Of a stretch of DNA of 64,000 nucleotides, positions 26,808 to 30,589 are shown in pieces. The number at the start of each line of letters is the position of its first letter. The stretch's first letter is position 1. Below the pieces are notes generated by a model that did not search any database, had not been told where the DNA came from, and was given only the letters and a program-made list of their open reading frames with translations. The DNA lies in contig NZ_AOLJ01000024.1 of assembly GCF_000336775.1 (NCBI RefSeq), positions 113,692-177,691 on the forward strand, in the 5' to 3' direction. The translations under genes were made by a program, and so were the position numbers. The DNA is from Haloferax gibbonsii ATCC 33959. GTDB lineage: Archaea > Halobacteriota > Halobacteria > Halobacteriales > Haloferacaceae.

Positions 26808-27398
26808 ATGAGCGCAGAACAGCCACTGGTGCTCATCGTTGAAGATGAGCCTGACCTCGCCGATCTGTACGCAACCTGGCTTAGGAACGACTACAGCGTT
26901 CGTGTCGCCTACGGCGGCCGCGAGGCGCTCGATAAGCTCGACGACGAGGTTGACGTTGTTCTCCTCGACCGTCGAATGCCCGACCTCTCGGGCGACGAAG
27001 CGCTCTCGGAGATTCGGGACCGTGGCTTCGAGTGCCGCGTCGCGATGGTGACCGCGGTCGAGCCCGACTTCGATATCATCGCCATGGGCTTCGACGACTA
27101 CCTCGTCAAGCCCGTCTCGCGCGAAGCGCTGACTGACACCGTCTCTAACCTCATCCTGCGAAACGCTTACGACGTAGGGATTCAGGACCTGTTTTCCCTC
27201 GCGTCGAAGAAGGCGCTCTTAGAGTCCGAAAAGGACGAAGCGGCGCTCGAAGAAAACGAGGAGTATCAACAGCTCACCGCCCGGTTGACCGAACTCCGGC
27301 GCGAGCTCGACGAGACGCTCGGCCAACTCGACGAGACCGAGGGAATCTCCGCAGTCTACCGAGACATCGGCGGCGAAGTCGACATCGACAGCTCCTAA
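26808..27398 (+). CDS. HalX-type response regulator
   Basis: This 196-residue protein has a receiver domain at residues 7-120. The acidic pocket is VEDEPDLA, the phosphoacceptor D54 lies in VVLLDRRMPDLSG, then come MVTAV and the Lys in YLVKPVSRE. The C terminus (about 125-190: DLFSLASKKALLESEKDE with a heptad-rich helix) is the haloarchaeal HalX domain, whose output is unknown. An AT stretch, TATTTTGATATA (26742-26753), is a likely promoter, giving a short leader of about 30 bases. No cognate kinase is adjacent; the CHAT locus begins 180 bases downstream. Confidence 0.93.
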   Translation: MSAEQPLVLIVEDEPDLADLYATWLRNDYSVRVAYGGREALDKLDDEVDVVLLDRRMPDLSGDEALSEIRDRGFECRVAMVTAVEPDFDIIAMGFDDYLVKPVSREALTDTVSNLILRNAYDVGIQDLFSLASKKALLESEKDEAALEENEEYQQLTARLTELRRELDETLGQLDETEGISAVYRDIGGEVDIDSS

Positions 27399-27543
27399 TC
27401 GGGTGCGGGCGTTCCGGTCGCCGACCCCTTTCACCTCTCTTTCCCGCTTTCGCGCGCCTACAGCGCCGTTTGCGACCTCGACGATTACTTGCGACACGTG
27501 TTCACTTAATTAAGTTATTTTCATATCAGATATACACGAAAAA

Positions 27544-27551
27544 TTATATTT
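27544..27551 (+). promoter_or_regulatory. TATA-like box of the 46-residue membrane peptide
   Basis: TTATATTT is the core of a longer AT run (27539-27551), 28-35 bases ahead of the ATG at 27579. It is among the clearest promoter-like elements in the window. Confidence 0.6.
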
Positions 27552-27578: not shown

Positions 27579-27719
27579 ATGTCCGACGACAGCAACCAGA
27601 TGGTCGCGTACCTCCGTCAGAACCCCCGCATGATGGGCGTCCTGTTCACGCTCACGCTCCTGCTCTCACAGGCGGGAAGCGTGGCAGCCGGCAACACCGG
27701 AATCATCTACGGTCCGTAA
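27579..27719 (+). CDS. 46-residue membrane peptide next to CHAT protease (DUF7503-like)
   Basis: This micro-ORF begins MSDDSNQMVAYLRQNPRMMG and ends NTGIIYGP. Residues about 19-37 form one hydrophobic helix (VLFTLTLLLSQ, then small Ala/Gly/Ser residues) behind a short charged N terminus, so it could be a single-span membrane peptide or a secreted precursor. The run AGSVAAGN after the helix would suit cleavage. A good TATA box and consistent codon usage support expression. From memory, similar 45-50 residue haloarchaeal proteins form DUF7503. Its stop is immediately followed by the stop codon of the opposing CHAT gene with no base between, a striking arrangement. Confidence 0.78.
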   Translation: MSDDSNQMVAYLRQNPRMMGVLFTLTLLLSQAGSVAAGNTGIIYGP

Positions 27720-29822
27720 TCACGGAAGGAATTCGCAATCCCAGTAGACGGTATCGTCGTAGACGACCGGAATCTGTTCTAACGCGAGGAAGTCTCGAAG
27801 TTCTTGGGTCGATAGCCTGATGTCCGAGAGAGACTGTGATGAGAGGAAATACTCGGAGTTGTTCGGTAATGCAGGTATGATTAGCGAACCGAGCCCACTC
27901 CGAGATGTGGGGTACGCGTTGTACGACAGTTCGTACGTGTCCGAGTCAATGTGCTCGACCTCGCAGAGTATCGCGACTCCGCTTTCGGCTTGGACTACAG
28001 AGAGGCTCCCGTCCCCGACCACGCCGTACTGGTGGGCGATGTCGCTGTCGGTTCGGACCACGTCGAGGGACGCCTGCAGCGGGAATCCCCCGTTAAGCAG
28101 TCGGGCCAGCGTGCGCCCCACGCCGACCGCCTGACTGTTGATGACCTCGCTGAACGTGACGATACCGCCGATAGCGCCGGCCTCGACGAGCGCGAGTCCC
28201 TGGTCGTACGACTGGCAGGCGTTGAGGAAGAACGCCCCCGTCCCGACGTGGTCGAGCGTCTCGGCGTCGACCCTGCCGTCGCGACACTGGAAGCCGTCGT
28301 CGTCGATGTGGCCGATGTAGTGGAGGAAGTCCGTCGGCTCGGCGAGTATCTCCCGAAGCTCCGCCCGGCTGAGGTCGTAGTGGGCGTCGACGTCGAACGA
28401 CAGCCCGTCGCGCGAGCCGTAGACGTCGTCGACGATGTCCGTCTCGGCGAGCATCTCCGGGTCGTTGCAGACGACCGTGATACCGATGTCTCCCTGCGTC
28501 GGCTTGCGCTGAAGCCGGTTCCGGTAGGCGGCGGGAGTGGTCTTGCTCGCGCCGACCGGCGTTCCGTCGCTTATCCACGCCTGCTCGACCGAGTCGGTCG
28601 AACTGGGCTTGACGTACGTCTCGTTCGGGGTCGTCGCGCCCGCGCTCCTGACGATGTCGTCGCGGAGGAAATCGTCGACGACGGCGGCTTGCACCTCCGA
28701 GTGGGGGACTTCGGTCCCCGTGGGCGTCCTGACGACCGCGAGGTCGTTCGTGATGAACGGCAGGAGCTCGATGTTGTCGGTCTGCGGCGCGACGTGCGTC
28801 GTCAGCTTCCACTCCGGGACGAGGTCGGCGATGTGCTCGTAGGGTATCTCGAAGTACGCCGAGAGCTGTTCGCCGAGCGACGCGTCGTACAGCCGCTCGA
28901 CGTCGATGTCCGTCCGCGACTCGACCGTCTGGCGCTCGTGGAGCGGCACGTCGTAGATGCCCTCCGTCCGAACGACGCAGTCGAGGAAGAACGTCCGTTT
29001 GAGCGCGCGCGCGACCGACTCCTCGAAGCCGTGGGGGCCGTCGAAGTCGTGGACGAACCCGTCTTCGGCGACGAGTCGGGGGGCGTCACCGGGGACGAGT
29101 CTCGCGCCGAGGTAGTACGCCAGCGGCGTCGCCACGAAGATGTGACTCAGCGTCGGCGGGAGTTCGATTCGGACGCCGGTCTCGGGGACGTGAAGCCCCT
29201 CCGGGATGTCGAGTTCGTCGCCCAACTCGAGAAGCGGCGGGTGACCTCGGAGCGTGGGGTACGACCGCTCGACGCTCGTGGTCTTGAGCGCGGAGCTGAA
29301 CGCCGAGACGGCCTCCATCACGTCCAGCGGGTCGTCGGTCGTCGTGACCGTCGTCGCGGGGCTCTCGTGCGACGACCGCGCGCCGACGTACACCGTCTGC
29401 GGCTCCTCGAACGAGAGGACGGTTTCGAGCGGCTTCGCGTCGACAGTCAGCGGTCCCTCGACTCTGAGGTACGTCTTGACCGCACCGAAGAGCTCGATGC
29501 TGTAGGTTGCCGCGTCGAGTTCCTCGTGTCCCTGCTGGTCGACCTGCGCGAGCATCGACCCCGCCTCGTCGCGGACGCAGACGACCGTGTTCGCCGCCAA
29601 CCCGATACGGTCGGTCTCGATGCGGACCGCCGCGTCCGTCGGGAGCGAGAACCGACGCCGGTCGGCCGGCTCGGGCGCGACAGGCGACGGCGTGCGAAGC
29701 ATGAACTGGTGGCGTTCGACGTTATCCCGAACGACCAACCCCGCGCCTTCCGAAGGGAGCGAAAAGCCGACTTCCAGCGTGGAAGACGCGTCAGCTCGCT
29801 TGCCCTGCCCGGACGATTCCAT
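27720..29822 (-). CDS. CHAT-domain caspase-like protease
   Basis: CHAT proteins are cysteine proteases of the caspase/separase clan. In this 700-residue protein the catalytic pair is FLHYIGHIDDDGF (H505) and FFLNACQSYDQG (C536). Around it are the usual VTFSEVINSQAVGVGRTLARLL and QYGVVGDGSLSV. The first 450 residues are beta-rich (SLPTDAAVRIETDRIGLAANT) with no recognised repeats, transmembrane helix or signal, so it should be cytoplasmic. It lies 50 bases downstream of a RecA-fold gene on the same strand and abuts a membrane-peptide gene tail to tail. Substrate and trigger are unknown; the neighbours are candidate partners. Confidence 0.88.
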   Translation of the reverse strand: MESSGQGKRADASSTLEVGFSLPSEGAGLVVRDNVERHQFMLRTPSPVAPEPADRRRFSLPTDAAVRIETDRIGLAANTVVCVRDEAGSMLAQVDQQGHEELDAATYSIELFGAVKTYLRVEGPLTVDAKPLETVLSFEEPQTVYVGARSSHESPATTVTTTDDPLDVMEAVSAFSSALKTTSVERSYPTLRGHPPLLELGDELDIPEGLHVPETGVRIELPPTLSHIFVATPLAYYLGARLVPGDAPRLVAEDGFVHDFDGPHGFEESVARALKRTFFLDCVVRTEGIYDVPLHERQTVESRTDIDVERLYDASLGEQLSAYFEIPYEHIADLVPEWKLTTHVAPQTDNIELLPFITNDLAVVRTPTGTEVPHSEVQAAVVDDFLRDDIVRSAGATTPNETYVKPSSTDSVEQAWISDGTPVGASKTTPAAYRNRLQRKPTQGDIGITVVCNDPEMLAETDIVDDVYGSRDGLSFDVDAHYDLSRAELREILAEPTDFLHYIGHIDDDGFQCRDGRVDAETLDHVGTGAFFLNACQSYDQGLALVEAGAIGGIVTFSEVINSQAVGVGRTLARLLNGGFPLQASLDVVRTDSDIAHQYGVVGDGSLSVVQAESGVAILCEVEHIDSDTYELSYNAYPTSRSGLGSLIIPALPNNSEYFLSSQSLSDIRLSTQELRDFLALEQIPVVYDDTVYWDCEFLP

Positions 29823-29872
29823 TGAGTCTATGTGACACGATTAGGGTAAAAAACGTATTGGTCGCGAGAACG

Positions 29873-30589
29873 TCACGGCTCCAACGGAAACCAGCCGGAC
29901 GAGACCTCCTTCCGCCGGAGGTGCCAGCGTTGGCGGACTTCCGCGCCCTCGACGTCGAGTTCGACGACGGCGTCGAACAGCGGTTCGAGCATCCGATTAA
30001 TCTCGTCCTCGCGGCCGCCGGGGGACCAGACGTGGACCATCCCGTTTCGCGCGCGGACGTGAGACGTCATGACGTGGAGGAATCGAAACACGTGGTCCCG
30101 CTCGTACCGCGAGAGGAGCGACGGCAGACAGTCGAACGCGACGCGGAGTTCGGCCGGAGAGAGCCCCCCGGCGAGGCTGTCGAACTCGGTCACGTCGGTC
30201 GCGAGTTCCGCGCCGAGTTGGCCGAGGCCTCCGCTCACCCGGCGTTCGCAGGTCTCGACCGCAGTCGGTACGGCGGCCGACGGTGACGGCGACGCCGCTG
30301 CGCTCCGTTCGAGCGTCGAGTACCGCACCACGCGGGTCCACTCCTTCGAGCGTTGGATGTCCGTGTCGAGGCGGGTGTCGAGCGGCGTCGAGTCGTTGAG
30401 AACTAACAGGCGGCGTCGAGGCTCGTCGGGAGCGCCGAGCATCTGCTTGGACGCGCGCGAGTAGAGTTCAGTCGGAACCGACCCGACGACGAGGAGCGCG
30501 CTCCCTCGTCGCTTGAGGTCGTCCAGCCCGAGTTGGAACGTGGACGTGTCCTCCGTCACGGCGATGTCCGTGTCACCTCCCGAAACCAT
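29873..30589 (-). CDS. RecA/KaiC-fold signalling protein without a P-loop (DUF7504-like)
   Basis: This 238-residue protein has the outline of a RecA core: a strand and turn ALLVVGSVPTELYSRASKQ where Walker A would be but without GKT, RLLVLNDSTPLDT, and a Walker B-like strand ELRVAFDCLPSLLSRY. The closing strands are FDAVVELDVEGAEVRQRWHLRR. ATP binding is therefore unlikely. From memory it matches the haloarchaeal DUF7504 family, often seen near signalling genes. It is the first gene of a probable two-gene unit with the CHAT protease and could act as its sensor or scaffold. Confidence 0.75.
   Translation of the reverse strand: MVSGGDTDIAVTEDTSTFQLGLDDLKRRGSALLVVGSVPTELYSRASKQMLGAPDEPRRRLLVLNDSTPLDTRLDTDIQRSKEWTRVVRYSTLERSAAASPSPSAAVPTAVETCERRVSGGLGQLGAELATDVTEFDSLAGGLSPAELRVAFDCLPSLLSRYERDHVFRFLHVMTSHVRARNGMVHVWSPGGREDEINRMLEPLFDAVVELDVEGAEVRQRWHLRRKEVSSGWFPLEP

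What the first reader, a model, noticed from the sequence alone, without database searches (positions are those of the whole stretch)
27579..30589. Candidate undescribed system: micro membrane peptide + CHAT protease + P-loop-less RecA-fold protein
Seen: a 46-residue single-helix peptide with its own TATA box stands tail to tail with a CHAT protease (H505/C536 intact, no other known domain). Upstream of the protease, in the same unit, is a RecA-fold protein that has lost Walker A. Known: CHAT proteases (caspase clan) can cleave partners such as gasdermins in bacterial cell-suicide defence. Inference: the RecA-fold protein may sense a signal and switch on CHAT, which would cut or release the membrane peptide as effector. 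The peptide could also be an inhibitor or membrane anchor. A HalX response regulator lies just upstream, without proven connection.
Basis: partly seen in the sequence, partly recalled or inferred. Interest (0 to 1): 0.8.

Follow-up and report, generated by a model that had tools for sequence, protein, structure and literature searches.

The report
Archaeal caspase-like protease with peptide partner
Most sampled salt-loving archaea carry a caspase-like protease gene that ends head-on against a tiny gene whose product looks like a precursor of a roughly nine-residue peptide ending in Gly-Pro, which may be an unrecognised archaeal peptide-signal or protease-control system.

Summary
Peptide (27579-27719 +), CHAT protein (27720-29822 -) and P-loop-less KaiC-like protein (29873-30589 -) are conserved genes: DUF7503, a divergent clan-CD protease with its His-Cys dyad in 64 of 64 aligned proteins, and DUF7504. 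Peptide plus CHAT is the core: all 250 sampled haloarchaeal genomes with DUF7503 also have the CHAT homologue, and all 61 peptide loci examined have it tail to tail. DUF7504 (56 of 135 loci) and a HalX regulator (30, all beside DUF7504) are additions in some lineages. What persists is the C-terminus: a leader with a signal-peptidase-like site, then usually 8-9 mostly uncharged residues ending Gly-Pro (119 of 128). In Haloplanus the peptide is a soluble polymer of such a tail; in the 13-unit case every unit differs in DNA yet all are identical in protein (435 of 754 synonymous, 0 of 2054 nonsynonymous). So the tail is probably the working part. Best reading: a propeptide whose GP-ended tail is the ligand of, or otherwise coupled to, the CHAT protease. 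Direction and substrate are unknown. No paper naming DUF7503/DUF7504 was found in the open-access library.

The parts
27539..27551 (+). candidate BRE/TATA element of the peptide gene, about 30 nt before the ATG; would give a leaderless transcript
   Evidence: read from sequence; AT-rich block at -40..-27 in 127 loci, strict TATA pattern 78 of 127 against 57 in a control window
27579..27719 (+). 46-aa DUF7503 peptide precursor
   Evidence: PF24335 E 7.4e-22, 77.1 bits vs cut-off 27; DUF7503 in 250 of 292 haloarchaeal genomes
27579..27689 (+). leader: n-region with conserved [HN]P[RK], about 13-residue hydrophobic stretch, V-A-A before the tail (signal-peptidase-like -3/-1 pattern)
   Evidence: weighted column statistics over 128 peptides: -3 V/A 95%, -1 A/G 99%; cleavage itself is inferred
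27690..27716 (+). predicted functional tail GNTGIIYGP (9 residues)
   Evidence: 119 of 128 end in GP, all four Gly and four Pro codons used; tail 8-9 aa in 114 of 128; similar unit repeated under selection in Haloplanus
27720..29822 (-). 700-aa CHAT-type clan-CD protease
   Evidence: homologue in 271 of 292 genomes
27987..28502 (-). caspase-like catalytic domain (about residues 441-612) with H505 (28308-28310) and C536 (28215-28217)
   Evidence: VIA Z 18.2 to SAVED-CHAT 8tl0_D over 441-611, Z 20.0 to gingipain R 4ief_D over 337-648; dyad invariant in 64 of 64
29873..30589 (-). 238-aa DUF7504, KaiC/RecA-fold protein without P-loop; optional partner
   Evidence: PF24336 E 9.1e-54; model pLDDT 89.6; KaiC fold; P-loop in 0 of 71
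26808..27398 (+). HalX response regulator, upstream of and on the same strand as the peptide; lineage-restricted addition
   Evidence: PF08663 and PF00072; same position in 30 of 135 distinct loci, in two separate parts of the CHAT tree, all DUF7504-positive

Best explanation
The core is a two-gene pair: a divergent CHAT (caspase-like) protease and, tail to tail, a micro-gene for a pre-propeptide. The working part of the peptide is its last eight to nine residues, small, mostly uncharged and ending in Gly-Pro. In most haloarchaea the leader would send it through Sec and signal peptidase would free the tail; in a few lineages the leader is lost and the tail is made soluble, in Haloplanus as many tandem copies. 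The GP-ended peptide then controls, or is sensed through, the CHAT protein, the only constant partner: directly (binding inside the cell, after re-uptake where it is exported) in the manner of a pheromone-receptor pair whose receiver is a protease. DUF7504 (a KaiC-like protein without P-loop) and a HalX regulator are accessory control parts in some lineages. Shown: the pairing, the catalytic dyad, the conserved GP tail, protein-level selection on the repeats, the signal-peptidase-like pattern. Inferred: cleavage, export, binding to CHAT, direction of the signal, cellular outcome.
For: Pairing: all 250 DUF7503 genomes hold the CHAT homologue and all 21 CHAT-less genomes lack DUF7503 (handles cross-tabulated); 61 of 61 peptide loci have the convergent CHAT; 72 of 80 CHAT-anchored loci have DUF7503. 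GP end: 119 of 128, all four Gly and four Pro codons, against 6 of 1563 neighbour ORFs picked by a rough composition score; dN/dS of the GP codons 0.02 or less. Beyond the Pfam family: a convergent GP-ending ORF at 145 of 176 distinct intact CHATs, and at 28 of 51 where the DUF7503 profile is silent (26 after inspection: one looks like chance, one is masked). Controls: 3 and 4 of 176 in shifted antisense windows, 14 and 4 in sense windows; 10 of the 14 are one reading frame in Haloferax relatives. Haloplanus repeats: 13 units, 13 DNA versions, one protein version, pS 0.577, pN 0. Signal-peptidase pattern; R/K 220 before and 10 after the hydrophobic stretch, tail 8-9 aa in 114 of 128. Soluble forms beside other CHATs end in tails that can be read with the same length: GNGTVITGP, GSSSPYTGP.
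Against: The tail is constrained between close relatives, dN/dS about 0.23-0.25, with no sign of diversifying selection. Soluble forms have no known export route, so 'exported signal' cannot hold everywhere. 23 of 51 CHATs without a DUF7503 hit have no GP ORF either, so CHAT can stand alone; five of these are second CHATs beside a peptide-bearing one. Nine of 128 peptides do not end in GP. The closest leader-bearing relative of the Haloplanus repeats, L039, ends NGAATSGP, only loosely like the unit. I saw no transporter or receptor among the neighbour families I annotated, 20 representatives; most neighbour clusters were not annotated. Nothing here measures cleavage, secretion or binding.
Confidence: 0.42

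Rival explanations
1. CHAT is the maturation protease: it cuts the precursor (or separates the tandem units) and the GP-ended peptide acts elsewhere, as a secreted signal, antimicrobial or modified (RiPP-like, possibly cyclised) peptide.
For: A multi-copy precursor with each unit under selection suggests a processing enzyme; CHAT folds like clan-CD processing enzymes, gingipain Z 20.0 and legumain Z 11.4. In nearly all Haloplanus units the residue before GN is Asp (TAD|GN), and in L182 and L183 LD|GS.
Against: Most precursors carry a signal-peptidase-like site of their own and would not need CHAT; no cleavage residue is shared by all forms; one Haloplanus leader (L166) has no basic residue and the 128 tails hold only 5 acidic residues in all.
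Confidence: 0.2
2. The peptide is an inhibitor or pseudosubstrate of CHAT (securin-like or antitoxin-like), its GP C-terminus docking near the active site.
For: One-to-one convergent pairing and a nearly invariant short C-terminal motif; separase, a fold match that has an inhibitor partner, Z 17.8; soluble forms fit a cytosolic target.
Against: The usual leader would place the tail outside the cell (basic residues 220 before, 10 after); second CHATs and other paralogues live without a recognisable peptide.
Confidence: 0.18
3. One reading: CHAT cuts the membrane peptide and releases a small membrane-damaging effector for cell suicide.
For: One hydrophobic segment in the window peptide; an invariant basic residue before it, R 79% or K 21%, is a possible cut site.
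Against: Clearly soluble forms keep only the GP tail (13 of the 28 loci listed, plus L092); the basic residue is missing in a Haloplanus form; no defence-family hit.
Confidence: 0.1
4. The Gly-Pro-stop end is a ribosome-arrest or slow-termination signal, so the act of translation, not the peptide, is what matters.
For: C-terminal Pro before a stop slows termination in bacteria (recalled, no call); the amino acids, not the codons, are conserved.
Against: Internal Haloplanus units are conserved through all 12 residues although they do not end at a stop; the convergent CHAT cannot be regulated in cis by an upstream arrest.
Confidence: 0.05

Closest known systems
RRNPP-type peptide signalling (Phr, PapR, AimP precursors; recalled, no call)
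   Same: precursor of about 45 aa with a signal-peptide-like leader, short C-terminal peptide, one dedicated partner gene next door
   Different: partner is a caspase-like protease with no TPR hit; genes are convergent; tail has a GP end; archaeal
Yeast alpha-factor-type multi-copy pheromone precursor (recalled, no call)
   Same: tandem copies of a short peptide with single-residue spacers, copy number varying between loci (2 to 13)
   Different: no signal peptide in these forms and no dibasic spacers; seen only in the Haloplanus-type loci among those examined
CHAT-gasdermin and Craspase (Csx29-Csx30) systems
   Same: caspase-clan CHAT protease with an intact dyad and a dedicated neighbour (fold Z 14.0 to TPR-CHAT 8d9f)
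   Different: no TPR or SAVED domain found; partner is a micropeptide; no PADLOC hit for the three proteins
Separase-securin
   Same: fold of the protease (Z 17.8) with a small dedicated partner
   Different: partner is 46 aa, secreted-looking or repetitive; the securin comparison is recalled
Haloferax volcanii caspase-like activity of unknown gene (PMC3615174; abstract start, passages)
   Same: caspase-like enzyme sought in haloarchaea; the abstract says gene homologues were lacking in archaea
   Different: the reported activity acts on LEVD and VEID substrates and not on ARR-AMC; whether this CHAT causes it is untested

Membership tests
DUF7503 (PF24335) | profile score over the curated cut-off | tested here: met
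   77.1 bits against 27
DUF7504 (PF24336) | profile score over the curated cut-off | tested here: met
   183.1 bits against 27
KaiC/RecA ATPase | RecA-like fold | tested here: met
   Foldseek E 3.6e-8 to KaiC 4tlc_E; VIA Z 17.0, rmsd 3.1 over 184 to 7s65_A
KaiC/RecA ATPase | Walker A P-loop | tested here: not met
   absent in the window protein; present in 0 of 71 DUF7504 ORFs of the fetched loci
CHAT protease (clan CD) | caspase-like fold of the catalytic domain | tested here: met
   Z 18.2, rmsd 2.3 over 170 residues to SAVED-CHAT 8tl0_D; Z 20.0, rmsd 2.7 over 242 to 4ief_D
CHAT protease (clan CD) | catalytic His-Cys dyad | tested here: met
   H505 and C536 invariant in 64 of 64
CHAT protease (clan CD) | Pfam PF12770 match | tested here: inconclusive
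   no hit for the window protein; 16 of 64 aligned proteins hit at E up to 0.1, best 3.7e-4
CHAT protease (clan CD) | proteolytic activity | not testable with these tools
   needs purified protein
CHAT-gasdermin or other listed defence system | a listed defence protein among the linked genes | tested here: not met
   no PADLOC hit for the three window proteins; the five window proteins scanned belong to other families or none. Neighbours of other loci were annotated only in part
RRNPP peptide signalling | leader plus short C-terminal peptide precursor beside its partner | tested here: met
   by sequence pattern only
RRNPP peptide signalling | TPR receptor | tested here: not met
   no TPR family for any of 64 CHAT proteins at E up to 0.1
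small hydrophobic (type I-like) toxin | hydrophobic membrane peptide in all members | tested here: not met
   Haloplanus-type forms at the same place have hydropathy maxima of -0.06 to -0.26

The most novel reading that the evidence does not exclude
A first genetically encoded peptide-signal system in archaea: GP-ended nonapeptides, exported by Sec or made as alpha-factor-like multi-copy polymers, gate (or are matured by) a caspase-clan protease present in most haloarchaea, linking cell-cell communication to archaeal caspase-like activity.
Probability: 0.3. Interest if true: 0.93.

Novelty: categorically new. Interest (0 to 1): 0.78.

Why it matters
The pair is in most sampled haloarchaeal species, including Haloferax, a genus with good genetics (recalled), yet the peptide and KaiC-like protein are DUFs, and the CHAT gene is called hypothetical in 22 of the 25 plasmid records that hold a homologue. 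If the GP tail is a signal it would be a new class of archaeal peptide communication; if it is an inhibitor or substrate it would still give a defined partner for a caspase-clan enzyme in a group where caspase-like activity has been reported without a gene (PMC3615174, abstract start and passages seen). The main steps can be tested in a tractable harmless organism.

Tried and rejected
Known defence system: PADLOC gave no hit for the three window proteins, phage records no match, viral contigs none confirmed of 20 candidates; 25 plasmid records, all listed as non-mobilizable, carry a CHAT homologue. The defence-island reading was therefore not pursued.

HalX as unrelated neighbour: rejected in part, because it recurs at the same place in two separate parts of the CHAT tree (30 of 135). 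In four Natrialbales-type loci that I read, its receiver part is degenerate (receiver scores of the three scanned below the Pfam cut-off).

An apparent conserved gene upstream of CHAT in Haladaptatus-type loci (cluster c10) has no Pfam hit and lies opposite a glyoxalase; I take it as spurious. A DNA-level reason for the GP end: rejected, since 24 of 25 peptides whose stop is more than 60 nt from the CHAT stop also end in GP and all codons occur. Diversifying selection on the tail: tested, not found. Arg/Lys as the general CHAT cut site: invariant in DUF7503 leaders but not in all soluble forms. 'No membrane segment' is clear for the Haloplanus-type and seven paralogue forms (hydropathy 0.11 or less) but not for the Halococcus (1.16) and Halomarina (1.12, 1.22) forms, close to the DUF7503 minimum of 1.2. 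Neighbour clustering used a composition score to pick ORFs and is rough.

Papers: searches; none holds DUF7503, DUF7504 or their Pfam accessions; none joins 'CHAT domain' with Haloferax volcanii. Subscription papers and preprints were not searchable. Of papers I saw search listings, and passages of PMC3615174 only.
Full report
WHAT IS THERE. The peptide is MSDDSNQMVAYLRQNPRMMGVLFTLTLLLSQAGSVAAGNTGIIYGP, DUF7503. Its stop codon abuts that of the 700-aa CHAT protein on the other strand. Upstream of CHAT, same strand, 50 nt away, is the 238-aa DUF7504 protein. A HalX response regulator (26808-27398 +) and a TrmB-type regulator precede the peptide. The nearest named relatives of the CHAT are Haloferax, 97% identity in H. 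prahovense.

THE PROTEASE. AlphaFold model pLDDT 88.6, pTM 0.89. The C-terminal part matches gingipain R (Z 20.0, rmsd 2.7 over 242), SAVED-CHAT (Z 18.2), separase (Z 17.8) and TPR-CHAT (Z 14.0). H505 and C536 are invariant in 64 of 64 aligned proteins. Pfam CHAT does not see the window protein and sees 16 of 64 family members weakly; 22 of 25 plasmid records name the gene hypothetical. The N-terminal half holds motifs as conserved as the active site (for example GHPP at 193-196), and its fold was not resolved.

DISTRIBUTION. In one even sample of 292 Halobacteria genomes: DUF7503 in 250, CHAT homologue in 271, DUF7504 in 292, most with several copies. In a phylum sample of 148, DUF7503 is in 18 of 24 Halobacteria and in none of the other 124; CHAT homologues are in 19 of 24 and in 4 of 124, all of one family.

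NEIGHBOURHOOD. I took 60 peptide loci by hand from the top-scoring rows, one or a few per genus, plus the window: 61 of 61 have CHAT convergent and adjacent. From the other side, 80 named CHAT loci (the best 80 of 465 found): 72 have DUF7503. Merged to 135 distinct CHATs: peptide 127, DUF7504 adjacent and co-directional 56, HalX beyond the peptide 30; the 30 all lie among the 56, none among the other 79. HalX-positive loci form two separate parts of the CHAT tree, a Haloferacaceae part (25, by my count of the printed tree) and a Natrialbales part (5). So the core is peptide plus CHAT, with DUF7504 and then HalX as additions. The tree is a FastTree with warnings about long branches, so I use it only for this broad split.

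THE PEPTIDE. Over 128 distinct sequences: leader with [HN]P[RK], a hydrophobic stretch of about 13, then position -3 V or A in 95%, -1 A or G in 99%, -2 free, which is the signal peptidase I pattern (the rule is recalled). R/K: 220 before the stretch, 10 after. The remaining tail is 9 residues in 80, 8 in 34, 7 in 7, 10 in 7 and ends in Gly-Pro in 119; three end in GT and six otherwise; all Gly and Pro codons are used and the rough background is 6 of 1563. dN/dS among 33 independent close pairs: leader 0.14-0.24, tail 0.23, GP 0.02. An AT-rich block at -40 to -27 is partly conserved in 127 loci; a strict TATA pattern occurs there in 78, against 57 in a control window; Shine-Dalgarno-like motifs are in 17 of 127. 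This fits, without proving, a leaderless gene with its own promoter.

THE DECISIVE OBSERVATION. The eight CHAT loci without a DUF7503 hit were read by eye. Two Halomarina loci have a diverged leader-bearing form ending GP. Two Halococcus loci have an ORF ending TYSGP with no clear leader. Two Haloplanus loci have a soluble ORF made of 12- to 13-residue units ending GP. One locus is masked and one is at a contig end. Of the 21 genomes with CHAT but no DUF7503, the best CHAT locus shows, by eye, a convergent GP-ending ORF in 11 (six Haloplanus-type repeats; L167, L168, L175, L177 leader-bearing; L179 soluble), none in 8 with intact CHAT (L171 has an arginine-rich GP-ending frame 258 nt away that I count as chance), none in 2 with a broken CHAT. 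Twenty further stretches, four of them from outside Halobacteria, gave 8 loci with a plausible GP ORF (a 170-aa overlapping frame in L197 I treat as chance). A uniform count over 176 distinct intact CHATs (24 rows dropped: 8 little flank, 6 duplicates, 5 without dyad motif, 5 short) gives a convergent GP-ending ORF at 145: 117 of 125 with a DUF7503 hit and 28 of 51 without. Controls: 3 and 4 of 176 in shifted antisense windows, 14 and 4 in sense windows. Listing them shows that of the 28 one is L171 and one is masked (L109), leaving 26; and that 10 of the 14 sense hits are one homologous frame in the window and its Haloferax relatives. Of the 28, 13 are clearly soluble (six Haloplanus-type, seven beside paralogous CHATs).

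In Haloplanus ruber (L101; L162 is the same sequence) the 13 units all differ from each other in DNA yet encode one identical 12-mer, TADGNSGGISGP: 435 of 754 synonymous and 0 of 2054 nonsynonymous differences summed over unit pairs. Five other Haloplanus-type loci have 4 to 10 units with the same trend (pS 0.20-0.42, pN 0-0.067; part of the pN is Ser TCN/AGY codon paths), though there some units are identical in DNA; one two-unit locus (L092) is too short to tell. Selection therefore keeps each unit, not only the last. The unit resembles tails of leader-bearing relatives, for example VAAGNHVGISGP in L027, though the nearest leader-bearing form, L039, ends VVASNGAATSGP. Tails of soluble forms beside other CHATs can be read with the same shape and length: GNGTVITGP, GSSSPYTGP. 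This is why I take the tail, not the hydrophobic stretch, as the functional part.

HOW IT MAY WORK. Shown: the items above. Inferred: in most species the tail is exported and freed by signal peptidase; in soluble lineages it acts or is processed inside. The constant partner is CHAT, so either the tail controls CHAT (best reading), inhibits it, is matured by it, or is cut by it as effector. In nearly all Haloplanus units and in L182 and L183 an Asp precedes the tail, which a caspase-like enzyme could cut; this is a lead only. DUF7504, a KaiC-fold protein without P-loop (0 of 71), is a plausible pseudo-ATPase scaffold; the other copies in the window's genome keep remnants of the P-loop or have lost it.

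KNOWN OR NEW. No paper in the library holds DUF7503, DUF7504 or their Pfam accessions; no paper joins 'CHAT domain' and Haloferax volcanii; none joins haloarchaea, quorum sensing and peptide pheromone. PMC3615174 (abstract start, passages) reports strong caspase-like activity in H. volcanii extracts on LEVD and VEID and none measurable on ARR; its abstract notes a lack of gene homologues in archaea. Whether this CHAT is the enzyme is open. H. volcanii has both DUF7503 and DUF7504 (control rows); its CHAT was not looked up directly. I rate the system as not matching a known kind, with the mechanism unproven.

Noticed in passing
   Followed up: partly
L201 (G023:C1:414500-426000): Three CHAT genes in tandem with an FLNGCRSY active-site motif and no convergent GP peptide.
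   Followed up: partly
L069, L071, L077, L150, L160: Natrialbales-type loci with a second CHAT on the far side of the peptide that has no recognisable peptide of its own.
   Followed up: no
L057:8165-8866, L064:9306-9902, L077:9285-9890, L160:10320-10925: HalX genes beside the peptide with a degenerate receiver part; HalX part retained.
   Followed up: partly
G012:C1:486534-486796: Two DUF7503 matches in tandem beside one CHAT.
   Followed up: no
window:27579-27689 and homologues: Synonymous divergence is lower in the leader codons (pS 0.24-0.32) than in the tail (0.56), hinting at a DNA- or RNA-level constraint in the leader.
   Followed up: no
L197-L200 (phylum sample, family code f19): CHAT homologues outside Halobacteria (E 1e-35 to 1e-49) without a DUF7503 hit.
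   Followed up: partly
G000 loci L192, L193, L194, L195, L196: The other DUF7504 matches of the window's genome lie on other contigs; those read in full keep degenerate P-loops or none.
   Followed up: no
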